Below are positions 1 through 35,132 of a stretch of DNA of 45,631 nt, in pieces. The DNA lies in IMG/VR virus record IMGVR_UViG_3300046003_004487, positions 1 through 45,631 of that record; one strand, 5' to 3'. The stretch is from a virus. The position numbers and the translations under genes are program-made. The stretch's first letter is position 1; every line of letters begins with the position of its first letter. The notes below the pieces were generated by a model. That model searched no databases and had not been told where the DNA came from. It was given only the letters and a program-made list of their open reading frames with translations.

Positions 1-2
1 GA

Positions 3-3000
3 GAAAAAAAGAATGGTACCGGAGGTACAAGCGGAACATCAGGAACAACCGGTACATCGGGAACTTCAGGTACTAGAGGAACTTCAGGAACAACAGGAAC
101 TAGCGGAACATCAGGGACTAATGGTACCGGAGGTACAAGTGGTACTTCAGGAACTAGCGGAACAACCGGAACTAGCGGTACATCAGGAACTAGCGGTACT
201 TCAGGAACTTCAGGTACTAGAGGAACTTCAGGAACAACAGGAACTAGCGGAACATCAGGGACTAATGGTACCGGAGGTACAAGTGGTACTTCAGGAACAA
301 CCGGAACTAGCGGTACTTCAGGAACAAGTGGTTCATCGGGTGTAAATATTGGTTCATCAGCGGTTATTGTTTTAGGTGCGGGTAAGAATTCATCTGTTAG
401 ATGTGGTGTTTCAAATACTTCGATAGGAAATTATTCAGCTTCTTTAGGTGGTTTTAATAATACATCAACAGGTCCTTATTCAGCAATTGTTGGTGGTTGT
501 TGTAATAATAGCCCAGGTGGTTATTCGTTTATTGGTGGTGGTAAATATAATAGCGCTTTTTGTGATAATTCAGCAATTGTTGGTGGTTGTCAAAACTCGA
601 TTAGTGGTACTTGTTCATCAATAGTTGGTGGTTCTTATAATACGACAAATGCTAGATTCTCATTTATTGGTGGTGGTCAAAGAAATATAATTCAATCATT
701 AACAAACGAATGTAATTCTTTAGGTGTAACAATCGGTGGAGGTATTGGACATAATACTTCAGGGGGAACATTTAATGCGACTACAGGAATTTTAACCGGA
801 CCAGTTGCTTGTTGTGATGCAGGTAAATTATCAACCATTGGTGGTGGTTTTAGAAACTGTGCCATAGGTGATTATACATTTATTGGTGGTGGTAGTTTTA
901 ACTCATCTCGTGGTAGTTATTCAATAATTAATGGAGGATGTCGTAATATTTTAAATTCTAGATTCTCAACAATTGGAGGTGGTCAAAGAAATATACTTCT
1001 ATCAACACCAAACGAATGTTGTTCTTTAGGAGCAACTATTGGTGGGGGTATTGGACATAACACAACCGGAGGGACATTTACAACATCAACAGGTATTTTA
1101 TCAGGAGTAATTACTTGTTTTGAAGGTGGTAGATTATCAACCATAGGTGGTGGATTTAGAAACCGTGCAACGGCTAAGTATTCAACAATTGCTGGTGGAT
1201 ATTGTAATTATGCTTCTATAACAGGAGCAACAATTGGTGGAGGGTCATTAAATTGTTCTAGAGGTGCTTATTCAACAATTGGAGGAGGAGTATGGAATAC
1301 TGCTTCTGGTAGTCGGTCAACCGTTGGTGGAGGACAATGTAATGTTTCTTCTTGTTATTCCTCAACAGTAGGGGGTGGTTTAGATAATACTGCTTCTAAT
1401 GGACGTGCAACAGTTGGTGGGGGTTCAGGAAATACAGCATCGGGATGTTTTTCATTTGTTGGTGGGGGTCGTTTTAACACCTCTTCTTGTTATGATTCAA
1501 CAGTTGTTGGTGGTTCTTGTAATATAAACAATGCTCGTTGTGGGTTTATTGGTGGGGGATTTAGAAATAATACTTCTGGAAATACCTCAACAATATCTGG
1601 TGGATATTGTAATAGAACAAGTACTAGAATGTCATTTATTGGTGGTGGACATAGAAACATAATTCAATCTGCAACTGACGAATGTGGTTCTTTAGGTGTA
1701 ACAATTGGTGGTGGTATTGGACATAATACTTCAGGTGGAACATTTACAACATCAACAGGGATTTTATCAGGAACAATTGTTTGTTGTAATGCTGGTAGAT
1801 TATCAACAATTGGTGGTGGATTTAGAAACTGTAATTTAGCAATATACTCTACAATCGCGGGTGGTTGTAATAATCTAATCATTTCTACATCCACATCTTC
1901 ATCTATTGGTGGAGGTTATTGTAATAAAATTTGTTGTATTGGTTCAACAATTGGTGGTGGTTATAAAAATACGGCTTCTGGTATTCGTTCAACAATTGGT
2001 GGTGGAAGTATTAATACTGCTGGTGGTGATAATTCGATAGTTGGCGGTGGAAATAGTAATACTGCTTCCGGTAATACCTCAACAGTTGGTGGAGGGTCAA
2101 AAAATCTTGTTTCTGTTTTAGGTGATTGTGCATTTATTGGTGGTGGTTGTGGTAATACTGCGGCATATGCATTTACAACAATTGGTGGAGGAAAATGTAA
2201 TTTGGCACAGGGTACTTGTTCATTCATTGGTGGTGGTGAATGCAATTCTACGGCACCTACGGCTCATCATTCAACAATTGGTGGTGGTCAATCCAATTGT
2301 ACGTGGACTTCTGCTTGCCATGGAACAATTGCAGGAGGTAGAGGAAACTGTGTTTCTTGTTGTTCCGGATTTATTGGAGGAGGTGCGGTAAATGTTGCGT
2401 CAAATTTTTACACATCAATTATGGGTGGTAAATGTAATAGGGCGTCTGATGGGTATGCAACAGTTGGTGGTGGTTATTGTAATCAAGCGGCTGGTCATTC
2501 TTCGACAATTGGAGGAGGTAGATTTAATCTTATATGTGGTAATTCTCGTTGTTCAACAATTGCTGGAGGGTGTTGTAATCTTATACAAACTAATGGTTAT
2601 TTTTCAACAATTGCTGGTGGTTCGGGAAATACTATCTCAGTATGTTCTTCATTTATTGGAGGTGGTGAATTAAATGTTATTGCCGCAAGTTCGGCGTGGT
2701 CTATAATTGGAGGTGGTCGTTGTAATATTGCTTCTGGTCAAACTTCAACAATTACGGGTGGTTTTAAAAACTGTAATGGAGGAGTATATGCGACAATTGG
2801 TGGTGGTTGTGGTAATTTAATCTTTTCTGCTTCCACAAGTTCAACAATAGGTGGTGGTACTTCTAATACTGCTTGTGGTAATCGTTCTACAATTTCTGGT
2901 GGTGGTCAAAATACTGCTTCTGATTTTTATTCTACAATTTCTGGTGGTGGTCAAAATACTGCTTCTGGAGATAGTTCATTTATTGGTAGTGGTCGAAATA

Positions 3001-5105
3001 ATACTTCTGGAGGGAATTATTCAACAATTGCTGGTGGTAAAAATAATATTGCTACTAATGTTAGTTCAACAATTGGTGGTGGTAAGGTAAATTTAAATAA
3101 ATCTCAATCCGGTTTTATTGGTGGTGGTAATTTAAACATAACATCTAATGAAACTATATTTAAATCATATTGTGTTAATTCTAATTGTTTTGTTATTTAT
3201 GGCGACCAAACATCATCATTTACTATTGGAGATAATTTTATTTCATCTAATTATAATAATACCACTTACGTAGGACAAATCACTAATGTTGTTTATTCTA
3301 GTTATTATACTTGTTTATATACAAACCAAACGTTTACTTATGGAAATAATCCAAGATTAGTAAATACAACTACCGCCCCTAATGGATGTAATTTTGCAAC
3401 AATCGGTGGTGGTTTTGCAAATAAAAGTTTTGGTTGTTTTTCGTTTATCGGTGGTGGAAGATATGGTATTTCTTCTGGTAATTTTTCAACAATTGGTGGC
3501 GGTTCTGCTAACACTGCATCTGGTATTGTATCAACAATTGCGGGAGGGTCAAATAATCTTGCTTCTAATACTGCTTCTTTTGTTGGTGGTGGTAATTCCA
3601 ATAGTGCTTCTGGTTGTTATTCAACAATTGGTGGTGGGGTATTAAATTGTGCTTGTGGTAATTTCACATTTATTGGTGGAGGTTGTAATAACAAAACTTC
3701 TACAGCTATTTTTTCAACAATTGGTGGTGGGTTATTAAATTGTGCTTGTGGTAATTTCACATTTATTGGTGGAGGTTGTAAGAACACTACTTCTACATCT
3801 ATTTTCTCAACAATTGGTGGGGGTTATTTAAATTGTTCAATTAGTTGTTATTCAACAGTCGGTGGAGGAAAGTCAAATTTTGCTTGTAGTCTTTTCTCAA
3901 CAATTGGTGGAGGATGTACTAACAAAAGTGCTGGTAATCATTGTTTTGGAACAATTGGTGGTGGTCGTGGTAATTTTGTAAAAGGAAACTACGGAGTTAC
4001 TAATAGTAAAGCATCAACAATTGCTGGTGGTTACAATAATTATACTTGTGGTGAATATAGTTCTATTGGTGGAGGACAAAACAATAGAATTACAAGTGCG
4101 GGTCATGGAACAATTGCAGGAGGTAGAGCAAACTGTGTTTCTTGTTGTTCCGGATTTATTGGAGGAGGTGCGGTAAATGTTGCGTTAAATTCATATACAT
4201 CCGTCATGGGTGGTAAATGTAATAGGGCATCTGATGGGTGTGCAACAGTTGGTGGTGGTTATTTTAATCACGCGTGTGGTCATTCTTCGACGATTGGAGG
4301 AGGTAGATTTAATCTTACATGTGGTAATTCTCGTTGTTCAACAATTGCTGGAGGGTGTTGTAATACTATCCAAAATGATGGTTGTTTTTCAACAATTGCT
4401 GGTGGTTCGGGAAATACTATCTCAGTATGTTCTTCATTTATTGGAGGTGGTGAATTAAATGTTATTGCCGCAAGTTCGGCGTGGTCTATAATTGGAGGTG
4501 GTCGTTGTAATATTGCTTCTGGTCAAACTTCAACAATTACGGGTGGTTTTAAAAACTGTGCAACAGGGACTCAGTCAACAATTGGTGGTGGTTGTGGTAA
4601 TACTGCTTCTGGTAATTGTTCATCTATTTTGGGGGGAGCGTCAAATACTGTTACTCACTATAATTCTCACATAATTGGTTCTAATTTAACATCAAGTGCT
4701 AGTAATACAACATTTGTTCAGGCATTATCTAAAACATCCGGAACATTTAGAATTAACCACCCTGACCCAAATAAAACAGAAACGAAATACTTACAACATT
4801 CATTTGTTGAATCACCTACAGAAGGAGATAATATATATAGATATGTTGTTGATGTTGTAAATGGGACCTCTATTATTAAGTTACCTGATTATTATAAGTA
4901 TTTGAATAAAAATACTCAAGTATGGGTGAGTCCTTTTAATGGTTTTGGAATTGCATATGGGGTTATTGATGATATTGAAGAAAATATTAATATATTTGCA
5001 GACAAGGATATTCGATATAATGTTCTTGTAATTGGAACAAGAAAGGATAAAGATGCCATTGAAAATTGGAATGGTATTGAAATACTTAAACCAAATAATA
5101 AATAA
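3..5105 (+). CDS. Giant collagen-like / beta-roll repeat fibre (adhesin), 5' end missing
   Basis: The frame is open from the left edge (first whole codon at 3) to TAA at 5103, about 1700 residues, and the true start lies upstream. Positions 15-329 encode 35 consecutive Gly-Thr-X triplets (X is Ser, Thr, Asn, Arg or Gly), a collagen-like pattern. From about 350 to 4700 there are roughly 80 copies of a 14-18 residue unit with core (S/T)-(T/F)-I-G-G-G-x-x-N, often followed by A-S-G. This resembles the head repeats of YadA-like trimeric adhesins (Hep_Hag type), which form a left-handed beta-roll. The unit is unusually rich in Cys and Asn. A non-repeat stretch interrupts it near 3140-3390. The last ~140 residues are a non-repetitive, charged domain likely to be the trimerising or receptor-binding tip. 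Triple helix and YadA-type rolls are both homotrimeric, which fits a long tail fibre. No signal peptide can be judged. An internal ATG at 1629 is not a start. Confidence 0.85.
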   Translation, partial: EKKNGTGGTSGTSGTTGTSGTSGTRGTSGTTGTSGTSGTNGTGGTSGTSGTSGTTGTSGTSGTSGTSGTSGTRGTSGTTGTSGTSGTNGTGGTSGTSGTTGTSGTSGTSGSSGVNIGSSAVIVLGAGKNSSVRCGVSNTSIGNYSASLGGFNNTSTGPYSAIVGGCCNNSPGGYSFIGGGKYNSAFCDNSAIVGGCQNSISGTCSSIVGGSYNTTNARFSFIGGGQRNIIQSLTNECNSLGVTIGGGIGHNTSGGTFNATTGILTGPVACCDAGKLSTIGGGFRNCAIGDYTFIGGGSFNSSRGSYSIINGGCRNILNSRFSTIGGGQRNILLSTPNECCSLGATIGGGIGHNTTGGTFTTSTGILSGVITCFEGGRLSTIGGGFRNRATAKYSTIAGGYCNYASITGATIGGGSLNCSRGAYSTIGGGVWNTASGSRSTVGGGQCNVSSCYSSTVGGGLDNTASNGRATVGGGSGNTASGCFSFVGGGRFNTSSCYDSTVVGGSCNINNARCGFIGGGFRNNTSGNTSTISGGYCNRTSTRMSFIGGGHRNIIQSATDECGSLGVTIGGGIGHNTSGGTFTTSTGILSGTIVCCNAGRLSTIGGGFRNCNLAIYSTIAGGCNNLIISTSTSSSIGGGYCNKICCIGSTIGGGYKNTASGIRSTIGGGSINTAGGDNSIVGGGNSNTASGNTSTVGGGSKNLVSVLGDCAFIGGGCGNTAAYAFTTIGGGKCNLAQGTCSFIGGGECNSTAPTAHHSTIGGGQSNCTWTSACHGTIAGGRGNCVSCCSGFIGGGAVNVASNFYTSIMGGKCNRASDGYATVGGGYCNQAAGHSSTIGGGRFNLICGNSRCSTIAGGCCNLIQTNGYFSTIAGGSGNTISVCSSFIGGGELNVIAASSAWSIIGGGRCNIASGQTSTITGGFKNCNGGVYATIGGGCGNLIFSASTSSTIGGGTSNTACGNRSTISGGGQNTASDFYSTISGGGQNTASGDSSFIGSGRNNTSGGNYSTIAGGKNNIATNVSSTIGGGKVNLNKSQSGFIGGGNLNITSNETIFKSYCVNSNCFVIYGDQTSSFTIGDNFISSNYNNTTYVGQITNVVYSSYYTCLYTNQTFTYGNNPRLVNTTTAPNGCNFATIGGGFANKSFGCFSFIGGGRYGISSGNFSTIGGGSANTASGIVSTIAGGSNNLASNTASFVGGGNSNSASGCYSTIGGGVLNCACGNFTFIGGGCNNKTSTAIFSTIGGGLLNCACGNFTFIGGGCKNTTSTSIFSTIGGGYLNCSISCYSTVGGGKSNFACSLFSTIGGGCTNKSAGNHCFGTIGGGRGNFVKGNYGVTNSKASTIAGGYNNYTCGEYSSIGGGQNNRITSAGHGTIAGGRANCVSCCSGFIGGGAVNVALNSYTSVMGGKCNRASDGCATVGGGYFNHACGHSSTIGGGRFNLTCGNSRCSTIAGGCCNTIQNDGCFSTIAGGSGNTISVCSSFIGGGELNVIAASSAWSIIGGGRCNIASGQTSTITGGFKNCATGTQSTIGGGCGNTASGNCSSILGGASNTVTHYNSHIIGSNLTSSASNTTFVQALSKTSGTFRINHPDPNKTETKYLQHSFVESPTEGDNIYRYVVDVVNGTSIIKLPDYYKYLNKNTQVWVSPFNGFGIAYGVIDDIEENINIFADKDIRYNVLVIGTRKDKDAIENWNGIEILKPNNK
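15..347 (+). repeat. Collagen-like Gly-Thr-X repeat region
   Basis: There are 35 Gly-Thr-X triplets in a row, then Gly-Ser-Ser and Gly-Val-Asn. At DNA level blocks recur at 144-bp spacing: GGTACTAGA at 69 and 213, GGTACCGGA at 123 and 267. This points to expansion by tandem duplication. No prolines occur, so stability would have to come from Thr (possibly glycosylated) rather than hydroxyproline. Confidence 0.9.
2319..2774 (+). repeat. Intragenic duplication, copy 1 (456 bp)
   Basis: This segment of the fibre gene recurs with few differences at 4104-4559, exactly 1785 bp (595 codons) downstream in the same frame. It spans about ten beta-roll units. Confidence 0.9.
4104..4559 (+). repeat. Intragenic duplication, copy 2 (456 bp)
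   Basis: Second copy of the 2319-2774 segment. Its last part (from about 4391) is identical to copy 1, while the middle carries several substitutions. That pattern suggests duplication followed by partial divergence or gene conversion. Confidence 0.9.
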
Positions 5106-5193: not shown

Positions 5194-6228
5194 ATGAAGT
5201 TATGTGCCATAACCAATTACCAAAATAAGGGATATATTAATGAAATGATTACCATTAATAAAATTTTAAATTCTCTATCTATATCCCAAGATGATACTTA
5301 CAATTTTATTTCTCCAAATATTACTTATGAAATAAATAAAACTTATACTCATGCGTTAATCTTTATGGATTATAAAGTTAGCAGTGTTGAGTTTTATAAA
5401 GAGTTCTTCAATGAAATCCAAATACCTAAAATATTCATAATTGATACGATTCCACACCATAATAAAGAACTTAATGATGAATTTATTGAGTTTAATATTA
5501 AAGGAATGATTAATAATTTTAATGGTCTCCCTATTAATCGACAATTATTTTTATATGAAAATTGTGCCGATGGATTTGTCTTTTTTAACGACAACGATGT
5601 TAATTTATTTCAAAAATACTACAAACTTAATAACCCTAAACCATTTTCAGTTATTTCACCACCTTTAGGGGATAAAGACCAAATCAATATAAATTTTAAT
5701 AATTTAATTCCCAATAAAAATATAGGTTTTAACGGATACCCATCAAACCAATCGGGGATGTTTGATTTATTAAATCTAATTGAGTTTAACCCCAAATATG
5801 TTTTGAATATGTATGGAACGCATGGGAGAGATGATATTTTAAATGAGATGATTGTAAATCATTTAACTTCAAAAAATAATAGAATTAAATTTAATGGTCG
5901 ATTAAAAAATGATGAGAAATTTTTTAAAGAAAATTATATATATTCTAATCTGTCTCTTTATGACACATACGATTATTATACCTTTTTTAGTTTGTTAAAT
6001 GGGTCTGTTCCCTTAATAAGTAAAAGTTCGGGAACATCGCAATTTTTTAAATCATATCCATTTATTGTTAATGATAAAGTAGATTCAATGTCTAATATGT
6101 TGGAAGTAATTAATAAAACTTCAATAGATGATATGAAAGACATATTAAAAACCTCATTAGAGGATATTAAAGAATTAAATAATGAAAATAATTATGAACA
6201 ATATAAAAAATTCCTTAATTCATTATGA
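5194..6228 (+). CDS. GT-B-type glycosyltransferase (GT4-like)
   Basis: A 344-residue protein laid out like a GT-B glycosyltransferase. The N-terminal half has alternating beta/alpha character. The C-terminal half begins with 'NIGFNGYPSNQSGM' near residue 180 and carries 'NMYGTHGRDD', 'IKFNGRL' and 'YYTFFSLLNGSVPLIS', which match the sugar-nucleotide-binding half of GT4-like enzymes where an acidic/turn segment precedes 'G.VPL'. No signal peptide or membrane segment is seen, so it should act in the cytoplasm. The start is supported by an A-rich leader and a TATTTAT motif at 5168. The stop overlaps the next start (ATGA at 6225), so the two are translationally coupled. The exact sugar donor and acceptor cannot be told; the neighbouring fibre is a candidate acceptor. 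Confidence 0.7.
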   Translation: MKLCAITNYQNKGYINEMITINKILNSLSISQDDTYNFISPNITYEINKTYTHALIFMDYKVSSVEFYKEFFNEIQIPKIFIIDTIPHHNKELNDEFIEFNIKGMINNFNGLPINRQLFLYENCADGFVFFNDNDVNLFQKYYKLNNPKPFSVISPPLGDKDQININFNNLIPNKNIGFNGYPSNQSGMFDLLNLIEFNPKYVLNMYGTHGRDDILNEMIVNHLTSKNNRIKFNGRLKNDEKFFKENYIYSNLSLYDTYDYYTFFSLLNGSVPLISKSSGTSQFFKSYPFIVNDKVDSMSNMLEVINKTSIDDMKDILKTSLEDIKELNNENNYEQYKKFLNSL

Positions 6229-7559
6229 TTAATAAAACATCAACATTAGGTTTTGATAAAATATATGTGATTAATTTAAAGCGTAGACCCGATAGAAAAG
6301 AAGCACTTATTAAAACTCTTCCGGGTCTTGATTTGACATTTATTGAAGCTGTTGACGGTAAGTTATTATCTGTTGAACAATTGATTACTGAAAAAAAACT
6401 GAATAAATCATTTTTAGACCCTTGGGGTAAAGTAACTATGGGTGTTTTTGCTTGTGCATTATCACATAAAAAGGCATGGGAACAAGCCTTAATAGATGGT
6501 GTTGAGACCGCATTGTTTTTAGAGGACGATGTTTATCTAACAAACCCTGTTTTAGAGAATGGGAGTTTTACACCACAATATGAAAGTATATTTAATGAAA
6601 TCCAACAATATGATTGGGATTTAATTCATTTAGGTAAGAAAACCGGAGGACAAACGGGGATTAATGTGGGGAAACATTTAGTAATCCCAAGATTTAATAC
6701 AAATTACAATGGAGCTCATGCTTATATTGCAACACGAGAGACGATAAAAACTATGTCAGACGAATATTATCCAATCAAATATGCCTCGGACCTTTATTTA
6801 GAACAATTTTATAATACTCATAATTCTTTCACTTTAAAAAATAATTTATTTAAACAAATAAGTGATGGTTTTAATCCTGAAAATGCGGATTCTGATACCT
6901 ACTATAATGAATTTAGAGAAAATAGCGGACGTGTGGGGCTTTCATTTGACCAAGATGGAAATGTTTTAAATAAAAAAATTGTAAATTATTTAAAACAGCC
7001 TAAAGACATTACTGATAGATATTTTGAAATGGTTTTAGATAAACCAAAATTTGGAATACAAAAATTTAATAAATCTAATTTTTTTGGGATTTCCGGTTTA
7101 TTAGGATTTCTTTTAACTCAGTTAGGTGAAAATGAGACCATGATTGAACTTTATCCTCATCTTGGGGAATTAACTTTCTTTTTTGGTAGTTGTGGGTTAT
7201 TTACTAATATCTATTCAATAGACCCTTTATTTGGAGAAGATGAATTTAATGTTAATAACGAAGTTACTTGGGAAGATGTTAGAATTGGGTTTCACAGTAA
7301 TACCTATCACTTTAAAAATATATCTCATATTGAAAAAAAACCTGAAGATGTGGTTGATAATTTTAATGACATTTCATTTTTATTTATTAATAATAGAAAA
7401 AACGAAGATATATTACCTTTAATTAATCAATATTATGATAAAATTAAAGATGATGGGTATATTGGAGGTAATTGTTATGAAAATGTTAACATACCTAACG
7501 CAAAAATATTTGACAATGGATATTGGATTATTAAAAAAAACGAACTTAATTTAAATTAA
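6225..7559 (+). CDS. GT25-type glycosyltransferase fused to a methyltransferase-like domain
   Basis: A 444-residue protein. Residues ~10-230 match glycosyltransferase family 25 (LPS galactosyltransferase / procollagen galactosyltransferase type): 'YVINLKRRPDRKEAL' near residue 14, 'FIEAVDG' near 38, and the acidic 'LFLEDDV' near 97 as the metal-binding site. Residues ~275-440 look like a Rossmann class I methyltransferase of the Methyltransf_24 kind ('ELTFFFGSCGLFTNIYSIDP', 'SFLFINNRKNEDILPLINQY'), but the SAM-binding glycine loop is degenerate, so it may be inactive or bind something else. It is coupled to the upstream glycosyltransferase by a 4-nt overlap. GT25 enzymes in animals and a mimivirus glycosylate collagen, which is notable beside a collagen-like phage protein; that substrate is an inference. 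Confidence 0.8.
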   Translation: MINKTSTLGFDKIYVINLKRRPDRKEALIKTLPGLDLTFIEAVDGKLLSVEQLITEKKLNKSFLDPWGKVTMGVFACALSHKKAWEQALIDGVETALFLEDDVYLTNPVLENGSFTPQYESIFNEIQQYDWDLIHLGKKTGGQTGINVGKHLVIPRFNTNYNGAHAYIATRETIKTMSDEYYPIKYASDLYLEQFYNTHNSFTLKNNLFKQISDGFNPENADSDTYYNEFRENSGRVGLSFDQDGNVLNKKIVNYLKQPKDITDRYFEMVLDKPKFGIQKFNKSNFFGISGLLGFLLTQLGENETMIELYPHLGELTFFFGSCGLFTNIYSIDPLFGEDEFNVNNEVTWEDVRIGFHSNTYHFKNISHIEKKPEDVVDNFNDISFLFINNRKNEDILPLINQYYDKIKDDGYIGGNCYENVNIPNAKIFDNGYWIIKKNELNLN

Positions 7560-7585: not shown

Positions 7586-8461
7586 TTATTGTTTATTAAT
7601 TGCATCTATAATTTTTTGAGTATCAAAAACTTCATACAGGTCGTTATAAGGTATGGAGCTAATATCTTGGAATAATAGATATTTAGAATAATGTGGGTGA
7701 TTTAAATCAGGTGTTTTGGTTGGTTCATTAGCCACAATATTATTATGAATATCATAACCAAACATTTTTGGATTTGTCCCAACCCAAGTCACCACTGATG
7801 GTAAATTTAACGCAGTTGCGATGTGCATCACACTACTATCAATTAACAATCTTTTTGTTGACATACTCAATAATACTGCAATACTTCTAAATGAATCTAA
7901 CGCTTGAAACGTATTTTCATAAATAATTTGGTCTTCTCGTTTAACATGTAAGATAGCATAATCATTTGCAAAATGATTTATAATGTCTTGCATAATTGGT
8001 TGAGGGATATCTCTTGTCCAACTATATTTTAATGGTTGATTAAATGCTCCCCCATGAGGTTGAATAACCATAATTGGTTTATCTAACTTATAGAACCCTT
8101 CAAAGTATTGTCTTTCGGCTTTACTAATAAATAATTCAGGTTTTTCACCGTTGTAATTTAGACCATACATTTCACACCATAATTGAATTAGATGTTTTTC
8201 TTCAGTGATATAATCAGAAGTTGCATATGGGTCAGATACAAACACTTTTGCATCTTTATTTAGAATGTATTTTTCATACACACCACTTATTGTTTCGTGA
8301 GTCAAAACTTTGTTAACATTTGGGTTGTTAACAAAAACGTCCGGATAACTAGTAACTACAATTATATTTGCCTTACTGTATTGTTTTTTTATTGCTTTTA
8401 ATACTGCGGTTCCCAAGATACTTTTACCTAGTCCACCATCTATTTGAAAAATTACATTCAT
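7586..8461 (-). CDS. GT9-like (heptosyltransferase-type) glycosyltransferase
   Basis: A 291-residue GT-B protein resembling glycosyltransferase family 9 (ADP-heptose:LPS heptosyltransferase). The N-terminus has the short strand and Gly-rich turn 'FQIDGGLGKSILGTAVLKAI'. The C-terminal half has 'LLIDSSVMHIATALNLPSV' and 'WVGTNPKMFGY', the family's donor-binding signature, in which an Asp/Ser pair precedes M-H-I-A. It is shorter than cellular heptosyltransferases (about 320-350 residues). It is the last gene of the minus-strand run and starts 1 nt after the stop of the DUF2061 gene. The acceptor is unknown: host LPS or a phage protein. Confidence 0.75.
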   Translation of the reverse strand: MNVIFQIDGGLGKSILGTAVLKAIKKQYSKANIIVVTSYPDVFVNNPNVNKVLTHETISGVYEKYILNKDAKVFVSDPYATSDYITEEKHLIQLWCEMYGLNYNGEKPELFISKAERQYFEGFYKLDKPIMVIQPHGGAFNQPLKYSWTRDIPQPIMQDIINHFANDYAILHVKREDQIIYENTFQALDSFRSIAVLLSMSTKRLLIDSSVMHIATALNLPSVVTWVGTNPKMFGYDIHNNIVANEPTKTPDLNHPHYSKYLLFQDISSIPYNDLYEVFDTQKIIDAINKQ

Positions 8462-8462
8462 A

Positions 8463-8678
8463 TTATTCTTTATTTTTTTTTAATCCAAATTTTATCCATT
8501 TATACCACACTCTTTCGTGTAGGAAATATATTAATGGTTTTATACATAACTCTGTTAACCCTATACTACCTGAAACCCAAAAATTCCCTGTAAATGCGTA
8601 TGATATTAAACAGGTTTGTATTGAACCTAGCATTCTATAACTAACGGCTTTACCTATGTGTCGTTTTATTTCTACCAT
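8463..8678 (-). CDS. DUF2061 small membrane protein
   Basis: A 71-residue protein that fits DUF2061: 'KAVSYRMLGSIQTCLISYAFTG' near the N-terminus (split here only for description) and the hallmark 'KPLIYFLHERVWYKW' near the C-terminus. Two hydrophobic segments are likely to span the membrane. Its start overlaps the stop of the upstream nucleotidyltransferase (TAATG). From memory, DUF2061 genes often sit beside cysC or nucleotidyltransferase genes in bacteria and phages, and that neighbourhood is repeated here. Its biochemical role is not known. A part in sulfur or nucleotide handling at the membrane is only suggested by context. Confidence 0.85.
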   Translation of the reverse strand: MVEIKRHIGKAVSYRMLGSIQTCLISYAFTGNFWVSGSIGLTELCIKPLIYFLHERVWYKWIKFGLKKNKE

Positions 8679-9103
8679 TATAGTTTACCGTCTTTTTTCA
8701 TTTGTTCTCTAATTTTTGTTGCGGAAATGTTTTTAATATCGTCAGGTGGAAAATGTTCATAAACATCATATCCGACACCTCTACCAATGTTAACACTTTC
8801 TATATCCGGAATTACCTGAATTACTAATCTTCCTTCGTCAATTAGGTCTTTTAATTCTTTATTTAAGTTTTCAATAACCCATTCTGTTGAAAATGGATTT
8901 TTATCATCAATTTCAACATCTCTAACGCATAGTAAAATATTTTTACCTCTATCCAATTGTTGGTCAATTAATGCTCTATGACCATGATGCCACGGTTGCC
9001 ATCTACCCACAAACATTGAATATTTTTTATTTGATGATGATGAAGCAAATGCTGCTTGTACGTGTGTTTTTCTTTCCCAATTACCCATTTGTTTTAAATT
9101 CAA
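8678..9103 (-). CDS. Small HxGH-motif nucleotidyltransferase
   Basis: A 141-residue member of the HIGH nucleotidyltransferase superfamily. 'MFVGRWQPWHHGHRAL' holds the HxGH motif (H39, H42), and 'ISATKIREQM' near residue 126 corresponds to the ISSTxxR triphosphate-binding motif. The family includes cytidylyl-, NMN- and pantetheine-adenylyltransferases and, more distantly, ATP sulfurylase. The substrate cannot be read from sequence. The gene overlaps the 3' end of the APS kinase gene by 23 nt if the ATG at 9103 is used; an ATG at 9088 would overlap by 8 nt. Sitting directly after APS kinase, it could supply an activated precursor, but at this length it is much smaller than ATP sulfurylase. Confidence 0.75.
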   Translation of the reverse strand: MNLKQMGNWERKTHVQAAFASSSSNKKYSMFVGRWQPWHHGHRALIDQQLDRGKNILLCVRDVEIDDKNPFSTEWVIENLNKELKDLIDEGRLVIQVIPDIESVNIGRGVGYDVYEHFPPDDIKNISATKIREQMKKDGKL

Positions 9104-9533
9104 TAATTTTGTTTATTATTTCCCCAACAGATTTTTGTTCAATAACATTTGTCGTATTAATGTCCACAAAATTCTCAGTAGGTGGTTCATAGTTTGATAC
9201 ATGATAATCTTCTCTACCTCTAACATCTTCAGTATGAATGTAAAATTCTAATACGTTATGATTGTTTTTAAATTCATCTCGTTGGTCTTTATAAGGTGAA
9301 ACTAATGAGACTATCACATCAAATCCTTTTGAATCTAAAAATAATGAAATGTCTTGAGCTTTCTCAATATTTTTTCTTCTCCCTATTTCAGAGTAATCTT
9401 TATTTTGGAAGACATCTCTAATGTCATCACCATCTACTAATATAACATTACTTGGTTGTAGATAATCTTTAACGTGTTTTGCTAATGTGGTCTTACCAGC
9501 GCCTGGTTGACCTGTAAACCAATATATTGCCAT
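9081..9533 (-). CDS. cysC: Adenylylsulfate (APS) kinase
   Basis: A 150-residue P-loop kinase. The Walker A is 'GQPGAGKTT' (residues 8-16), followed by 'LVDGDDIR' near 32 and 'GRRKNIEKAQDIS' near 50. 'VSLVSPYKDQRDEFK' near 80 matches the 'SPyr.dR' segment of APS kinases. The enzyme phosphorylates adenosine-5'-phosphosulfate to PAPS, the universal sulfate donor, in the cytoplasm. It is somewhat shorter than bacterial CysC (about 200 residues). It lies 19 nt after the sulfotransferase gene in the same direction, so donor synthesis and use appear co-transcribed. A general nucleotide or polynucleotide kinase is a less likely alternative because the DGDD and SPY segments fit CysC. Confidence 0.85.
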   Translation of the reverse strand: MAIYWFTGQPGAGKTTLAKHVKDYLQPSNVILVDGDDIRDVFQNKDYSEIGRRKNIEKAQDISLFLDSKGFDVIVSLVSPYKDQRDEFKNNHNVLEFYIHTEDVRGREDYHVSNYEPPTENFVDINTTNVIEQKSVGEIINKIIEFKTNG

Positions 9534-9552
9534 TCTTTATTTTTTTAAAATT

Positions 9553-10371
9553 TTATACATAACCAAAATAGTCATAAAACCATTTGTAATGATTCTTAAT
9601 ATTCATTGATAGTTCATAACCTAAAACTTCCATATAGTCATCCGGTTTTTTTTCAAATTTTGGTCTTAACTTATGGTCACCATATATCCCATGTACCCTA
9701 TCATCTTCATGAGTTAATTGTGATATGTTCTCAAAATCATGCCCATCATAATTCGGTACACCCAAATATTCGTATATTCTCGACATTTCTTGTTCAGGAT
9801 TACTCATTAAATCTTCGTAACGAATAAATAACATTTTATCGTCAATTCCTTGTTGTATAATATCTAATAATCTATCAATAGAAGTTCCAACAGGTACTCC
9901 ACCCGCCCAAATATCAATACGTTTATTTAATGTCGTACCAATTAATTCTGCCGGTCTTTGAATCCCGTTTTCCCTATGAGGATTTTTTCTAAAATTCTTT
10001 TCCATTGAACTATAGACCGCTCTAACATCTCTAACCATACAAATAATTTTTGGGTTTGGATTTATCATTTCCAATAAACTATAATTGATACCCCATTCTC
10101 TACTTTTATCTATTACGATTGGTTTGTCAGTAAGTCTTTTAAAATAACCTTGCATACCATCTTGACAAAAATCAACAAACGCTTTGGTCATTTCATCTTG
10201 ATTTTGTGCTTGAAATGCTTGAGAGTGATTGTAATTGTTTTTACAGGCGATTACAAAATCCACCAACCCTGATGTTGGTGTTGAGTAAATTTCAGGATTT
10301 TGAGCTAATAAATTCTGAATTAATGTACTTCCACTTCTGGGTAGGGAAGAGTTAAAAAATATTTGTTTCAT
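9553..10371 (-). CDS. PAPS-dependent sulfotransferase
   Basis: A 272-residue sulfotransferase of the Sulfotransfer_1/3 type. The 5'-phosphosulfate-binding loop is 'SSLPRSGSTLIQNLL' (residues 8-22, with R12-S13-G14-S15-T16). The 3'-phosphate-binding segment is 'CMVRDVRAVYSSMEK' (R114, S121/S122). 'FIRYEDLMSNPEQEM' further on is the usual third element. It transfers sulfate from PAPS to a hydroxyl or amine. No signal peptide or membrane anchor is present, so it works in the host cytoplasm. It sits between an FkbM methyltransferase and APS kinase in one operon surrounded by glycosyltransferases, so a sulfated glycan or a tyrosyl/seryl group on a virion protein is the likely product. The acceptor is inference. 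Confidence 0.88.
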   Translation of the reverse strand: MKQIFFNSSLPRSGSTLIQNLLAQNPEIYSTPTSGLVDFVIACKNNYNHSQAFQAQNQDEMTKAFVDFCQDGMQGYFKRLTDKPIVIDKSREWGINYSLLEMINPNPKIICMVRDVRAVYSSMEKNFRKNPHRENGIQRPAELIGTTLNKRIDIWAGGVPVGTSIDRLLDIIQQGIDDKMLFIRYEDLMSNPEQEMSRIYEYLGVPNYDGHDFENISQLTHEDDRVHGIYGDHKLRPKFEKKPDDYMEVLGYELSMNIKNHYKWFYDYFGYV

Positions 10372-10375
10372 TTAA

Positions 10376-11053
10376 TTAAACGTTATATATGTGTATTATT
10401 ATTTCTGTATAGTGTTCTAAAAAATTATCAGACATTAAATTCCATTTTACATTAACACCATCAATCGAGTATACCTCAACATTTATAAAATATTGTAAGT
10501 AAGTGTCTCTAAATTTTTTAAATTTTTCTTTTAAAATTGGTGTACCTAAATGCCATTCACCTGTAATTTTTTTAACATTATTTTTAATAAATTCAAAATT
10601 CTCATCATTAAAAATATCGTATTCACCACCCTCACAATCTGTTTTTAAAAAATCTATGGTTTTTAAATTGTATAACTCACAAAGTTTTTTAAAAGTGATT
10701 CCTTCCATTTGTTTTGAACCCCCATAAATGTCATTACAGTCAGTATATGTGTTGGTATTTGAGATACCCTTCAATATTGGTGTAACCGGATAACCGACAG
10801 TGTTATTAACTAATGTAGGAAATTCATATTCACTCGGTTCAAGACAATATACGTGTTTTGGTTTTTTTGATAAAATACTATAAGTAAATGGTCCAACACT
10901 AGCCCCAAAATCTAAAACAATATCACCCTCAGAAACTTCAAAAAACTTTTCATATATTTTATCAATAAATGTTTCTTGAGTTATTTGTTCTTTATGAAAC
11001 AAACCTTCTTCACTTTGCTCCATCCATCCCCAATCAAAATTAGTTAAGTTCAT
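10376..11053 (-). CDS. FkbM-family methyltransferase
   Basis: A 225-residue class I SAM-dependent methyltransferase. Motif I is 'IVLDFGASVGPFT' near residue 45, followed by an acidic 'YCLEPSEYEF'. 'TIDFLKTDCEGGEYDIF' near 130 is the FkbM hallmark, in which D-x-E-G-x-E lines the active site. Members methylate sugar hydroxyls in polyketide glycosides, LPS O-antigen and glycans. The stop of the 1447-residue enzyme gene overlaps this gene's start at 11053, so translation is coupled. In this context it probably caps or decorates a glycan built by the adjacent transferases. Confidence 0.85.
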   Translation of the reverse strand: MNLTNFDWGWMEQSEEGLFHKEQITQETFIDKIYEKFFEVSEGDIVLDFGASVGPFTYSILSKKPKHVYCLEPSEYEFPTLVNNTVGYPVTPILKGISNTNTYTDCNDIYGGSKQMEGITFKKLCELYNLKTIDFLKTDCEGGEYDIFNDENFEFIKNNVKKITGEWHLGTPILKEKFKKFRDTYLQYFINVEVYSIDGVNVKWNLMSDNFLEHYTEIIIHIYNV

Positions 11054-14000
11054 TATAGTAAATGTTGTATTTGTTTAATAACCATTTCCGGCGTTATTGA
11101 TGTATGACATTCAAATTGTTTTTCAGTCCCTTTATTGATGGGACACCAATTCCAATCCCCTTTATCAAAGGTGAATTCAGGTTTATTCCAACATCCATTA
11201 CAAACTGAACGGTTTACAATTCTAGTACAATTAAGTATAAACTCATGGTCTTCATTTGTAAAGTTAGAAATCATAACAACTTTTTTACCTAAACCCCACG
11301 CTAACCAAGATAAACCACTAGATAAACCAATAAAGAATTCACTATGATTAATCACATTCATAGTATGATGAATTGATGTGTTTTTAATTTTATTTGCATT
11401 ATAAAATGGGTTATCTTCTTTTGACACATTAATAATTTTATAACCTAAATTATGAAGATAGTTAATTAGTTCTTGCCAACCTTCTCTTGTCCAAAATTTA
11501 CATCCCGCAGTTGAATTGGTTGCGATAGTTATATATTTCTGTTTATAAGGTCTTGTGTTAACGGTACTATGTATTGTAGGTTTAATTTCTTCAAAATCTA
11601 AACCTAAAATATTTGTAATAGTTTGTTGTAAAGGTATTGTGTTTGGTAAAATTGGTTCTTTGTTTTTATCATAAAACCACCCAATTGAGTACATAGCATA
11701 AAGATTATGTGTTGTAACTCCGGGCACCACAAATTCAATCTCCGGATATTCATTTTCAAACAAATGATTCCAAAAGGTTGACACAATTACTTTACAATTA
11801 TGTTTCTTTTTAAACTCTAACACATATGGAATCCAAGCAATTGAATCCCCTAATGATTTACTCTCAAATGAGATATAAACTCTCTTATTAGTTAAATCCA
11901 ATGTATTGTCATAAATTACAATATTATCTCTACTCACAACTGCTCTCCATTTGGTGTAATAACTACGACTTAATTTAACCCAATGATTTGGTTTTATTGT
12001 GTTCTCATAATGACAAACACCATTTTCATCAAAGAATTTTACATTATAATCTTTATCACCACTACCTTTTATTTCTAAGAAGGGTTCCTTAACAAAATGT
12101 TGGAGTACTTGTACTTCTTCGTCAATCATTGTTTGTTTTTTTATAGGTTGATTTAGTATTTGTTGATATAATTGGTAATTTTTTTCAGCAAATTCTTTAA
12201 CCCCATATGATGGAAATCCATAATTAATATTATCATTAATTAAATCTAAAAGTTGATTTTTCATATCAAAAATATCACCATAAATTGGTTTAATATACGG
12301 TGTAAACATATCCATATATTGTGGTAAATTTCTTGATAAGATTTTTAACCCATAAGATATTCCTTCTCTTAATACTAATGGGTTACATTCCCAAGTTGAG
12401 TTAAACATTAACACATCGGCTGCCATCATAAAGTCATTAACATTATCTTTCTCACCCCATACTCTAACATTGGTTGGCAGGTCTTTCATTATAGGTTCCC
12501 AATAATTTTGAAAGTTAGGAGCTTGATTCCCAATAAAATGAAATTCTAATTCAGGGTAAACCCCTTCAACTAATCTAGCAATCTCAACACCCTCACCTTG
12601 ATTTTTACCCGATGTCCATAATCCAACATTTATAATGTGAGTTTTGTTTGGGTCTAAACCTAATTTTTCTTTACTACTTTTTTTTGATAATATGATTGTA
12701 GGTGTGTAGGGAAATTCAATTAGTTCACCATATGATGGCATATTAACGAATGTAACTTCTTTATGAAAAGGAGAACAAAATGAATATGCGTCAGGATGAA
12801 ATATTTTTTCTTTATCCGGTTGAAACATTATGTTATGACAAGTTTCCACGACTCTCCATGTTCGGTCATTTTTATAAATAAAATTTATTAAGTTGTTTGA
12901 CAATTTATTATGAGAATCAAACGCTTCAATCATTTCATCTAAATGGATAATGTCAAAATAATTTTCCTCAATAATTTTCTTTAATTCATTCTTATCTTCA
13001 CCTAACGTCCAAAAATGTGACGAAGGTACTAATTCTTTAATTCTATTTTTTTGAACAACAAAATGGTCACTATGATTTGAATATTCCACAACAAAAAGTT
13101 CTGTTTTATCTTCATAATATTCCAATAATGATTCAATCCTTTTTAATAGAAATGATGGCATTCCTCCGGTTGATAGATGTGGTGCCAAGAATAAAACTCT
13201 AATTTTTTCTTTATGATGGTTTTTGATTTTTGATATCATTTTACCCATTTCTAAAATATTTTTTTCTCCGTGAATAAATAACAAACCATCTTTCTTGTTT
13301 GGAATCTTAACCCATAAACTTTCTTCATTAATATTATAATTTGAATAAATATTATCTATTAATTCTAAATTTCCGTTAGCATAAATGTAAGGTAACCCAT
13401 CAAATATTAATTTTTTCCACAATAACACATTTAAGATGGTCTCCTCATTATACGCCGCATAATATGGGATATTATTTAATACTTCAGGGTGAGAACACAT
13501 TTGATACCATTCAGATAAAAAATCAACACATTTTTCATTTGATACATAATAACCTGTTTGTCGGTATTTTTCTCTAACATATTGATTAACATTAAATAAT
13601 TCACATGCCGGGTATTCCAACGTGGTTGACATATCATCTCTAGTCATCGCACCACCTCGTTCACCTACGTGTAGATAATCATAAATCCCTTCAACAAAAT
13701 AAGGATAATCTTTATCATTATCGTATAAGTCAAAGATTCTATCAACATATGGTGTTGCAATTGAATCGCAATCAACAAACGCAACCGTTTTAGTGTATTT
13801 AGATAAAACGTCTTTAGTGATTAATGGTTTTTGTATTAAGATGTTGTAAATTGTTTTATTGGTTCTATTAATATAGAAATTTTCGCCCTCTTGAATGTAT
13901 CTATTGGAATTGTCATCAACTAAGTCTAAATCCCACATTATTGTGACCACATCTTTAATGTTTATCACTTTATCAGAGTTAATTAGATATAAGAAAATGG

Positions 14001-15396
14001 GTAAATCACTATATTCACGAATTGATTTAATACACATTTTAGCAACATCAAAATAATTTTCAGTTGCTAATAATAGATATGATTTTTCTACTTTATTTTT
14101 TAATATTAAAGGTTCTTTTCTTGAGAATGATTTTTCAATTATTTTGTGATGATGAACAGGTGTTGACACATATTGTAATCCAATTTCATTTTCTAATAAA
14201 AATTCTCTAACAGGAGAATCAAAACGATTTGTTTTGTGGATATTCAACAAGTTTAAAATTCCTTTGCTATAAGCGATTGGTCCGGTAACTCTTAATACCG
14301 AATTCTTATCCGCGCCACCAATGTAATTTCTAATATTATCTTTAACTACTTCAATAACATTTTCTAAAAATGGGTGGTTTGGTTTACAGATGATGTGCCA
14401 ATTTTGAAATTCACCAAAATAATATTTTAATTCATCCGCCCAATCTAGACCCTCCCAATGTGTTAATAGATACTCGTCAGTTGGTAATAAGACTTCTTCT
14501 AATGGTTTTGTAGTACAACTTTTAATATCTAAATAAACACCACCAACTTTATACATTAAAAGATATCTAAATAAATCAGCTCTTGCCGACCCATAATTTG
14601 GGTTAATACTTAAATAAAGATTAAGGGTTTCTTCATCATAATTTTCTTTAATAAATTTAACACAATCATCATTATTGTAGAATTTATAGTCAAATGTTGG
14701 GTTCATATCTTTTAACCTTTGAACTACTTCAATTATTTCAGTTGGTAAATCATTAGTTTTATATGTTTGATGAATCACTCTTGGTATTTGAGGTTTAATT
14801 AATGTAATATCACTAACATGTCTTATCATTTGATAATCCGATAGTTCTGAAACTAACTTATCAATCTCAATTTTGTTTGAAACACCATCGTGATATTCTA
14901 ACGTTATTTTACTCGGTATTGGAAAAGAGTGTTCCTTACAATAGTCCAAAAAATCTCTAAAGATAATGTGGTCATGACCTTCAGTGTCAATTTTTAAATA
15001 ATCAACCGACCCAATATTATATGTGTTAATTAACGTTTTCCAACTAATCGTTGGTACTTTTTCAATGGTGACCAAACTATTGTATAGTTCTTCACCTAAT
15101 TCTTTAATCGCAAAAGGGTGGGGATTATTTATTGAGTTACTTCCTCTAACCCACCAAGGCAAGTTATTTTCTTCAATTTTCCAATCATCGATATAATATA
15201 CATCAACTTCACCATCAGTTGTTGATAACGCCGCTTGGACTTTAATGATGTTCTGTTTATCTGGTAATCTATTTATGTAATATTTTATAGGTTCAATACT
15301 AATACCGACAGTCTTGTCATTAGAAGTTTCAATTAAAGTATCAAAATCTGAAGTACCAATTTCAATAAAATCGTAATGTTTGATGTTTAATGACAT
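11053..15396 (-). CDS. 1447-residue multi-domain glycan enzyme: FkbM MT + GT32 + GT-A + GT4 + autotransporter-type heptosyltransferase
   Basis: Domains in order. Residues 1-200: FkbM-like methyltransferase ('DYLKIDTEGHDHIIF' near 132). 203-430: GT32/OCH1-like sugar transferase ('IPRVIHQTYK', then 'ARADLFRYLL' and 'GGVYLDIKSC' at 271-294). 435-710: GT-A domain resembling GT8 ('AFVDCDSIATPYVDRIFDLY' at 539-558). 730-1080: GT4 GT-B ('LFLAPHLSTGGMPSFLLKRI', 'INVGLWTSGKNQGEGVEIAR', 'FNSTWECNPLVLREGISYG'). 1100-1447: strong resemblance to bacterial autotransporter O-heptosyltransferases (TibC/AAH type): a beta-strand lead-in, 'SFESKSLGDSIAWIPYV', 'CKVIVSTFWN', and four cysteines at 1399, 1402, 1418 and 1430 spaced C-x2-C-x15-C-x11-C as in the TibC iron finger. 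No signal peptide is visible, so it is a cytoplasmic polyenzyme. It is the first gene of the minus-strand operon, with an A-rich leader. The last domain points to a protein rather than lipid acceptor. Confidence 0.85.
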   Translation of the reverse strand: MSLNIKHYDFIEIGTSDFDTLIETSNDKTVGISIEPIKYYINRLPDKQNIIKVQAALSTTDGEVDVYYIDDWKIEENNLPWWVRGSNSINNPHPFAIKELGEELYNSLVTIEKVPTISWKTLINTYNIGSVDYLKIDTEGHDHIIFRDFLDYCKEHSFPIPSKITLEYHDGVSNKIEIDKLVSELSDYQMIRHVSDITLIKPQIPRVIHQTYKTNDLPTEIIEVVQRLKDMNPTFDYKFYNNDDCVKFIKENYDEETLNLYLSINPNYGSARADLFRYLLMYKVGGVYLDIKSCTTKPLEEVLLPTDEYLLTHWEGLDWADELKYYFGEFQNWHIICKPNHPFLENVIEVVKDNIRNYIGGADKNSVLRVTGPIAYSKGILNLLNIHKTNRFDSPVREFLLENEIGLQYVSTPVHHHKIIEKSFSRKEPLILKNKVEKSYLLLATENYFDVAKMCIKSIREYSDLPIFLYLINSDKVINIKDVVTIMWDLDLVDDNSNRYIQEGENFYINRTNKTIYNILIQKPLITKDVLSKYTKTVAFVDCDSIATPYVDRIFDLYDNDKDYPYFVEGIYDYLHVGERGGAMTRDDMSTTLEYPACELFNVNQYVREKYRQTGYYVSNEKCVDFLSEWYQMCSHPEVLNNIPYYAAYNEETILNVLLWKKLIFDGLPYIYANGNLELIDNIYSNYNINEESLWVKIPNKKDGLLFIHGEKNILEMGKMISKIKNHHKEKIRVLFLAPHLSTGGMPSFLLKRIESLLEYYEDKTELFVVEYSNHSDHFVVQKNRIKELVPSSHFWTLGEDKNELKKIIEENYFDIIHLDEMIEAFDSHNKLSNNLINFIYKNDRTWRVVETCHNIMFQPDKEKIFHPDAYSFCSPFHKEVTFVNMPSYGELIEFPYTPTIILSKKSSKEKLGLDPNKTHIINVGLWTSGKNQGEGVEIARLVEGVYPELEFHFIGNQAPNFQNYWEPIMKDLPTNVRVWGEKDNVNDFMMAADVLMFNSTWECNPLVLREGISYGLKILSRNLPQYMDMFTPYIKPIYGDIFDMKNQLLDLINDNINYGFPSYGVKEFAEKNYQLYQQILNQPIKKQTMIDEEVQVLQHFVKEPFLEIKGSGDKDYNVKFFDENGVCHYENTIKPNHWVKLSRSYYTKWRAVVSRDNIVIYDNTLDLTNKRVYISFESKSLGDSIAWIPYVLEFKKKHNCKVIVSTFWNHLFENEYPEIEFVVPGVTTHNLYAMYSIGWFYDKNKEPILPNTIPLQQTITNILGLDFEEIKPTIHSTVNTRPYKQKYITIATNSTAGCKFWTREGWQELINYLHNLGYKIINVSKEDNPFYNANKIKNTSIHHTMNVINHSEFFIGLSSGLSWLAWGLGKKVVMISNFTNEDHEFILNCTRIVNRSVCNGCWNKPEFTFDKGDWNWCPINKGTEKQFECHTSITPEMVIKQIQHLL

Positions 15397-15499
15397 ATTT
15401 TTTTTATTACAAAAATAATAAATTACTAATAAAGTTCCATAGTAAATATTAAAATTGTTAAGTATTTATGGTAAAATAATTCTATCTATATTTATTGTA
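15397..15499. promoter_or_regulatory. Divergent intergenic region
   Basis: A 103-nt AT-rich gap lies between the minus-strand glycan operon and the plus-strand mucin-like gene. It holds TATTTAT at 15463 and 15489 on the plus strand and a near-match to ATAAATA (GTAAATA, about 15442) in the other orientation. Promoters for both operons are expected here. Confidence 0.5.
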
Positions 15500-17347: not shown

Positions 17348-17413
17348 TATTATCGAAACTTTATTAGTTTTTTAATGACCCTATATTATTAAAAACATAC
17401 ACAAAAAACACTT

Positions 17414-17435
17414 ATATCTTATAATTATAAGATAT
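17414..17435. promoter_or_regulatory. 22-bp perfect palindrome
   Basis: ATATCTTATAA followed directly by its reverse complement. It has no T tail in either direction, so an operator or structured leader is likelier than a terminator. It ends at the ATG of a short frame. Confidence 0.5.
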
Positions 17436-17535
17436 GATAAATAAAAAAAAAATGGTGATAGGTTGTAGATTAGGGTTAATAGTGGATGATGATGGTTGTA
17501 CAATAGTGGGAGTTGAAAGTGTGAACTTAACATAG
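17434..17535 (+). CDS. Possible 33-residue protein
   Basis: ATG at 17434, a second ATG at 17452 and TAG at 17533. The product begins Met-Ile-Asn-Lys-Lys-Lys and continues with a short hydrophobic and acidic segment ('LGLIVDDDGCTIVGVESV'). Base composition is richer in G than the surrounding gap, which looks coding-like. No family is recognised and no clear ribosome site is present. It could be a remnant of a longer gene. Confidence 0.3.
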   Translation: MINKKKMVIGCRLGLIVDDDGCTIVGVESVNLT

Positions 17536-17660
17536 ACTTTTTAATTATATAAAATAAAATAAACATACTATTATATCAAGTTCAATTTCGTCATAATAAT
17601 TAAATAAAATTATTTATATTTAATTATAAATTATTATCTTTTGTATAAAACAAGAGATAA

Positions 17661-22108: not shown

Positions 22109-22109
22109 T

Positions 22110-35038: not shown

Positions 35039-35132
35039 TAATTTATAAATACTTCTTATGAAGTAAAGTATTTTGGTTTTTTTTATAATATTTATCAATA
35101 AAAATAAATTTACAAATAAAAAAGACAAACTA

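What the first reader, a model, noticed from the sequence alone, without database searches (positions are those of the whole stretch)
11053..12099. Phage-encoded autotransporter-type O-heptosyltransferase with a four-cysteine iron finger
The last ~345 residues of the 1447-residue protein look like TibC/AAH-type enzymes, which attach heptose to Ser/Thr of beta-helical autotransporter adhesins. The sequence shows the strand-rich lead-in, the GDSIAW segment and cysteines spaced C-x2-C-x15-C-x11-C (residues 1399, 1402, 1418, 1430). In bacteria this enzyme is found next to the adhesin it modifies. Here a giant beta-roll fibre with the same kind of repetitive surface is encoded 6 kb away. A phage that glycosylates its own fibre with heptose would be a new use of this family.
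Basis: partly seen in the sequence, partly recalled or inferred. Interest (0 to 1): 0.88.

Follow-up and report, generated by a model that had tools for sequence, protein, structure and literature searches.

The report
Phage TibC-like enzyme paired with fibres
Large bacteriophages carry their own branch of a bacterial enzyme family that attaches sugars to surface adhesins, and they gain and lose it together with giant collagen-like tail-fibre genes, which suggests that they sugar-coat their own fibres.

Summary
Residues ~1100-1447 of the 1447-aa protein (11053-15396, minus strand) are an AAH/TibC-family domain: TIGR04414 276.5 bits against a cut-off of 200; AlphaFold model pLDDT 91.6; best PDB match TibC (TM 0.91), with LPS heptosyltransferases far behind. 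The four cysteines and the catalytic Asp/Lys/Trp are present. It is not unique: 265 viral contigs encode relatives. Those compared form a clade separate from all bacterial members sampled.

Two interpretive points change. (1) 'Heptose' is not secured. In 61/61 phage domains the Arg that contacts adenine in TibC (R286) is Thr or Ala, against Arg in 83/84 bacterial members, and the dodecamer-forming thumb is about 10 residues shorter. (2) The conserved partner is not a beta-roll as such but collagen-like Gly-Thr/Ser-Ser fibres, alone or fused to a beta-roll as in the window. A fibre lies downstream and convergent in 28 of 41 non-redundant loci. Among polymerase-matched relatives, TibC and collagen-like repeats occur together in 7/7 and are both absent in 22/22.

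Best reading: a phage protein O-glycosyltransferase, fused to further glycosyltransferases, that modifies Ser/Thr of the phage's own fibre. A new variant of a known family. Donor sugar and acceptor are untested.

The parts
11053..12096 (-). AAH/TibC-like O-glycosyltransferase domain (residues 1100-1447 of the 1447-aa protein)
   Evidence: TIGR04414 276.5 bits; PDB TibC E 5.7e-50; AlphaFold/Foldseek TibC TM 0.91
11107..11202 (-). Four-cysteine metal (iron) finger: C1399, C1402, C1418, C1430, equivalent to TibC C339/342/358/370
   Evidence: Invariant in 61/61 distinct phage and 84/84 bacterial domains
11845..11847 (-). Putative catalytic base Asp1184 (GDSIAW), equivalent to TibC Asp110
   Evidence: Invariant in all sequences compared; role from eLife 2014 (PMC4358343)
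11362..11364 (-). Thr1345 in place of TibC Arg286 (adenine contact)
   Evidence: Thr in 60/61 and Ala in 1/61 phage-clade domains; Arg in 83/84 bacterial domains
12097..15396 (-). N-terminal modules of the same protein: FkbM-type methyltransferase (26-148), Gly_transf_sug (219-302), GT4 (905-1035)
   Evidence: Pfam; a GT4 domain precedes the TibC domain in 9 of 9 other polyproteins scanned
10376..11053 (-). FkbM-type methyltransferase, start codon overlaps the TibC stop (TAATG)
   Evidence: Pfam PF05050; sequence
9553..10371 (-). Sulfotransferase, same transcription direction
   Evidence: Pfam PF13469 E 4e-22
9081..9533 (-). APS-kinase-like protein
   Evidence: Pfam PF01583 E 4e-16
8678..9103 (-). 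Nucleotidyltransferase-like protein
   Evidence: Pfam CTP_transf_like, phrog_10255
7586..8461 (-). Second, GT9-like glycosyltransferase (weak)
   Evidence: Pfam PF01075 23.3 bits, cut-off 22
3..5105 (+). Candidate acceptor: fibre (5' open) with collagen-like Gly-Thr-Ser block then beta-solenoid repeats, convergent to the TibC gene
   Evidence: Pfam Collagen; translation; solenoid model pLDDT 90.9; a comparable fibre in L067 ends in the Peptidase_S74 chaperone
6225..7559 (+). GT25-type glycosyltransferase, same strand as the fibre and 1.1 kb downstream of it
   Evidence: Pfam PF01755 E 2e-20

Best explanation
The 1447-aa protein is a phage-encoded, multi-module protein-glycosylation enzyme. Its C-terminal TibC-fold domain most likely transfers one sugar from a nucleotide donor to Ser/Thr hydroxyls of the phage's own long fibre (the G-[T/S]-S collagen-like shaft and/or the beta-solenoid), probably before virion assembly. 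The fused GT4 and Gly_transf_sug modules and the co-transcribed methyltransferase and sulfotransferase could then elaborate the sugar. The family membership and its distinctive residues are shown by computation; the fibre as acceptor is inferred from linkage and co-occurrence; the order of elaboration is a guess. The donor is open: heptose is possible, but the loss of the adenine-contact Arg means it should not be assumed.
For: Fold and family. Catalytic Asp110/Lys230/Trp305/Thr226 and four Cys equivalents kept in 61/61 phage domains. In 14 large viral contigs read end to end or nearly so, collagen-like or beta-roll fibre ORFs number 1-3 per genome; in 11 of 14 one lies 0.4-6.1 kb from the domain, always on the opposite strand (random placement, Fisher-combined p 1.8e-7, not corrected for kinship). 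A fibre lies downstream in 28/41 non-redundant loci, all convergent, against 3/41 (weak) upstream. Polymerase-matched relatives, edge-truncated contigs excluded: collagen repeat in 7/7 TibC+ and 0/22 TibC- contigs; contigs >=90 kb 5/5 and 0/9; at least 4 gains/losses, 3/3 independent contrasts concordant. A distant member, Microcystis phage Mel-JY01 (39% identity), has a collagen-like ORF and an annotated 'structural protein' directly upstream. The 735-kb phage LR756501 has a collagen-like ORF whose near end is 4.8 kb upstream of the domain. Positive control: many bacterial family members have a large G/S/T/N/A/V-rich ORF next to them, none collagen-like.
Against: No biochemical data exist. 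The association may be linkage of a mobile fibre cassette without direct modification. One clade (L013-L024; G006, G010) has no collagen or beta-roll fibre beside the enzyme and has a mucin-like Thr/Pro protein nearby instead. Arg286 is lost and the thumb shortened, both reported to matter for TibC (PMC4358343), so activity on a similar acceptor or donor is not guaranteed. LR756504, a very divergent member, has no match to the collagen-repeat pattern anywhere in the record.
Confidence: 0.6

Rival explanations
1. One reading: a true ADP-heptose-dependent enzyme that heptosylates the beta-roll part of the fibre, as TibC does on beta-helical adhesins, using the host's ADP-heptose.
For: Family and fold; catalytic Asp, Lys, Trp kept; Ser at the P300 position as in AAH, which accepts both ADP-heptoses; the fibre repeats model as a beta-solenoid with Ser/Thr-rich turns.
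Against: The adenine-contact Arg is lost in 61/61 phage-clade domains and kept in 83/84 bacterial ones; thumb shortened. No GmhA in the 27 viral-clade contigs or Mel-JY01. Most relatives pair with collagen fibres lacking any beta-roll.
Confidence: 0.25
2. The enzyme acts on the mucin-like Thr/Pro-rich protein (15455-17347) that lies divergently upstream, not on the collagen/beta-roll fibre.
For: A mucin-like ORF flanks the enzyme in the window and several relatives, including the clade without a neighbouring fibre.
Against: Mucin-like ORFs persist in a TibC-lacking relative (three in G034) and are absent from many TibC-positive genomes. The mucin-like ORF has its own better candidate enzyme, a GT60-type polypeptide GlcNAc-transferase 10-317 bp downstream in five loci.
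Confidence: 0.1
3. The domain modifies a host surface glycan or adhesin during infection, for example to block superinfection, and sits near fibres because both belong to the host-interaction region.
For: Phages do carry surface-modifying glycosyltransferases (general knowledge); many other glycosyltransferases surround the gene.
Against: The characterised members of this family modify protein Ser/Thr (PMC4358343). TibC co-occurs with the collagen repeat, and a fibre lies immediately beside the gene in several loci (20-800 bp).
Confidence: 0.1

Closest known systems
TibC of enterotoxigenic E. coli / AAH of diffusely adhering E. coli (TIGR04414, bacterial autotransporter heptosyltransferases)
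   Same: Fold (TM 0.91), N-terminal strand-rich lead-in, catalytic Asp, Lys and Trp, four-cysteine finger, gene beside a large repetitive surface protein
   Different: Phage clade separated from all bacterial members sampled (SH-aLRT 99); Arg286 replaced; thumb shortened; fused to GT4 and other modules; partner is a collagen-like or beta-roll fibre, not an autotransporter
GT9 LPS heptosyltransferases WaaC and heptosyltransferase II
   Same: Shared GT-B family 9 core (Pfam PF01075)
   Different: TM only about 0.5 and far below NCBIfam cut-offs
A0A6J5SVC1 'Glycosyltransferase Aah/TibC' of an uncultured phage, and a Virus NIOZ-UU157 protein (UniProt entries in BFVD)
   Same: Same domain, TM 0.94-0.96
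   Different: Database names only; no study of phage members was found in the library
Collagen-like proteins of phages and prophages (e.g. E. coli O157:H7 prophages, PMC3368898 abstract)
   Same: Gly-X-Y repeats in phage-borne genes
   Different: Here X and Y are mostly Thr/Ser with very little Pro, and a protein glycosyltransferase gene is attached

Membership tests
AAH/TibC autotransporter O-heptosyltransferases (TIGR04414) | Score above the curated cut-off of the family model | tested here: met
   276.5 bits against 200; six other phage-type members 223-317 bits
AAH/TibC autotransporter O-heptosyltransferases (TIGR04414) | Four metal-binding cysteines of the iron finger | tested here: met
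   Invariant in 61/61 phage domains; the actual metal is not testable here
AAH/TibC autotransporter O-heptosyltransferases (TIGR04414) | Catalytic Asp110 and donor residues Thr226, Lys230, Trp305 | tested here: met
   All four invariant in the phage clade
AAH/TibC autotransporter O-heptosyltransferases (TIGR04414) | Arg286 contacting adenine (ADP specificity) | tested here: not met
   Thr/Ala in 61/61 phage domains, Arg in 83/84 bacterial; role from PMC4358343
AAH/TibC autotransporter O-heptosyltransferases (TIGR04414) | Beta-hairpin thumb mediating the ring dodecamer | tested here: not met
   Region of 39 residues in 83/84 bacterial domains is 28-29 in the phage clade, tip residues deleted
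AAH/TibC autotransporter O-heptosyltransferases (TIGR04414) | Adjacent autotransporter adhesin as substrate | tested here: not met
   Neighbour is a collagen-like or beta-roll phage fibre
AAH/TibC autotransporter O-heptosyltransferases (TIGR04414) | Transfer of heptose from ADP-heptose to Ser/Thr | not testable with these tools
   Needs enzyme assay or glycopeptide mass spectrometry
GT9 LPS heptosyltransferases | Best match to WaaC/WaaF-type models and folds | tested here: not met
   TIGR02193 21 bits against cut-off 185; TM about 0.5

The most novel reading that the evidence does not exclude
A phage-specific protein O-glycosylation system: the TibC-fold enzyme has switched nucleotide-sugar donor and oligomeric form and glycosylates hundreds of Thr/Ser in proline-poor G-T-S collagen-like shafts, so that sugar rather than (hydroxy)proline stiffens the fibre. 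This would be a bacterial-virus counterpart of glycosylated-Thr collagens.
Probability: 0.25. Interest if true: 0.88.

Novelty: new variant of a known kind. Interest (0 to 1): 0.64.

Why it matters
Glycosylation of phage fibres is little explored, and enzyme-substrate pairs are rarely known. This locus offers a testable pair: a defined enzyme clade with clear signature changes, and a repetitive Ser/Thr acceptor that is gained and lost with it. One member, Microcystis phage Mel-JY01, has a recorded host and might be tested directly. It also warns that the automatic name 'autotransporter heptosyltransferase' may misdescribe hundreds of viral proteins.

Tried and rejected
LPS heptosyltransferase reading: rejected by model scores and fold comparison. 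Chance motif or artefact: rejected (265 viral relatives; high-confidence model). Beta-roll as the conserved partner: rejected as general, since most relatives have collagen-like fibres without it. Phage-made ADP-heptose: GmhA absent from the viral clade and Mel-JY01, present only in the divergent LR756504; RfaE-II-like hits below cut-off. Mucin-like protein as main partner: less likely. No paper on phage TibC homologues was found; searches for glycosylated-Thr collagen and for Mel-JY01 gave nothing useful. Foldseek of the fibre solenoid gave no significant PDB match, so it cannot be called autotransporter-like.

Full report
CHECK. The 1447-aa ORF is on the minus strand at 11053-15396. Its last ~348 residues pass the TIGR04414 (Aah/TibC) curated cut-off by 76 bits and match TibC, PDB 4rap/4rb4, at E 5.7e-50 over almost the full domain. 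The AlphaFold model, built from relatives found here, is confident (pLDDT 91.6, pTM 0.89). Its best PDB matches are all TibC chains (TM 0.86-0.91), then a large gap to GT9 LPS heptosyltransferases at TM about 0.5. The cysteine spacing and residue numbers in the finding are exact and align with TibC's four iron ligands.

WHERE IT SITS. The contig is a viral record with DNA polymerase, helicase, tail sheath and tail tube genes. The protein also has an FkbM-type methyltransferase, a Gly_transf_sug and a GT4 domain. Its stop codon overlaps the start of a second FkbM gene as TAATG. A sulfotransferase, an APS-kinase-like protein, a nucleotidyltransferase-like protein and a GT9-like protein follow on the same strand. 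The fibre (3-5105, plus strand) is convergent to this operon; a GT25 gene lies 1.1 kb beyond the fibre's end.

A PHAGE CLADE. A scan of viral contigs found 265 encoding relatives; the best 80 were 59-100% identical. Bacterial and archaeal genomes gave at best 44% identity, and the three closest genome contigs (L083-L085) group with phage sequences. In the tree, the viral-contig sequences form one clade (SH-aLRT 100), and these plus reference phages and the three odd genome contigs are split from all bacterial members (SH-aLRT 99), including TibC. Nine of nine other polyproteins scanned have a GT4 domain in front of the TibC domain; a stand-alone version exists (L065, L073).

WHAT CHANGED. In TibC, Asp110 is the candidate base, Thr226/Lys230/Trp305 hold the phosphate and sugar, and Arg286 contacts adenine N1 and explains ADP preference; alanine at 286 abolished or largely reduced activity (PMC4358343). 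Asp110, Thr226, Lys230, Trp305 and the four Cys are all kept in 61/61 distinct phage domains, but Arg286 is Thr in 60 and Ala in 1. It is Arg in 83/84 bacterial domains. No gap lies between this position and the invariant SGLSW motif, so the alignment is firm. More distant phage-type sequences vary (Ile, Leu, Val; Arg in L084 and LR756501). Ser replaces Pro300, as in AAH, which accepts both ADP-heptose epimers. Heptose and a dodecamer are therefore not secured.

PARTNER. Fourteen large viral contigs were read end to end or nearly so. Collagen-like (Gly-X-Y) or beta-roll fibre ORFs number 1-3 per genome. In 11 of 14 genomes one lies 0.4-6.1 kb from the enzyme, always on the opposite strand. Placing the enzyme at random gives a Fisher-combined p of 1.8e-7; kinship between genomes is not corrected for. 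Over 41 non-redundant loci with at least 4 kb of downstream sequence, 28 have such a fibre downstream, all convergent; 3 have a weak upstream one. X and Y of the triplets are mostly Thr and Ser, with very little Pro. Collagen regions match PHROG tail-fibre families, largely through the repeat itself; one fibre (L067) combines collagen repeats, a sub-threshold beta-roll match and the Peptidase_S74 fibre chaperone. The window's own repeats model as a beta-solenoid without a significant PDB match.

CONTROL. To separate functional association from shared ancestry, relatives were fetched through the DNA polymerase instead. TibC is patchy among them, as is the collagen repeat. Leaving out two contigs cut at the relevant edge, the repeat is present in 7/7 TibC-positive and 0/22 TibC-negative contigs; for contigs of at least 90 kb, 5/5 and 0/9. 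Three of the seven positives (G001, G003, G013) were known beforehand to hold TibC, but all three also appear in the polymerase scan. On the polymerase tree TibC needs at least 4 gains or losses and the 3 independent contrasts are all concordant; three are too few for significance alone. Some contigs are near-identical and some are fragments, so the raw Fisher p values overstate the evidence. Independent lineages agree: the cultured Microcystis phage Mel-JY01 has a collagen-like ORF and a 'structural protein' just upstream, and a 735-kb phage has a collagen-like ORF whose near end is 4.8 kb upstream of the domain. Bacterial loci act as a positive control: many have large G/S/T/N/A/V-rich ORFs adjacent and none collagen-like.

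MECHANISM. Shown: a TibC-fold enzyme with an apparently intact catalytic site, in a phage operon, co-inherited with a Ser/Thr-rich fibre. Inferred: the fibre is the acceptor and the modification is O-linked. Conjectured: the donor is not necessarily ADP-heptose; the fused glycosyltransferases, methyltransferases and sulfotransferase decorate the first sugar; and sugars stabilise a proline-poor collagen-like shaft, as glycosylated threonine is known to do in some invertebrate collagens (own knowledge; the literature search did not supply a source). Exception: one clade (L013-L024) lacks a neighbouring fibre and has a mucin-like protein nearby.

NOVELTY. The enzyme family is known and one phage homologue already carries an Aah/TibC name in UniProt. 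The phage clade with altered donor and oligomer residues, its GT4 fusion and its tie to collagen-like fibres were not found described in the library searched, which lacks most subscription journals. I file it as a new variant of a known kind.

Noticed in passing
15455-18908 (+): A mucin-like protein of [11 protein letters not shown] repeats is followed by a homologue of GT60 polypeptide GlcNAc-transferases (PF11397, E 3e-71). The pair is 10-317 bp apart on the same strand in 5 of 9 loci with this enzyme: a second candidate enzyme-substrate pair.
   Followed up: partly
8678-10371 (-): Sulfotransferase, APS-kinase-like and nucleotidyltransferase-like genes in a row suggest phage-directed sulfation, perhaps of the same glycan; homologues lie near the enzyme in G001, G023 and G025.
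   Followed up: partly
L082 (PP395634.1) 2-3049: In Microcystis phage Mel-JY01 the collagen-like ORF is not annotated as such; the record places hypothetical proteins on the opposite strand (739-2298) and at 2519-3052.
   Followed up: no
LR756504.1 (W03) 430182-430640: A 636-kb phage with a divergent TibC-like protein encodes GmhA (251.5 bits, cut-off 209), the first enzyme of ADP-heptose synthesis, 27 kb away.
   Followed up: no
G021:C1:11888-12673 and G015:C1:30436-31176: Second, partial or divergent TIGR04414 matches in genomes that already hold one.
   Followed up: no
35073-38459 (+): The tail sheath ORF is long (1128 aa); only its C-terminal quarter matches sheath families.
   Followed up: no
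19586-23792 (+): Further glycosyltransferase-type genes: a GT34/methyltransferase fusion and an HtrL_YibB-type protein.
   Followed up: no
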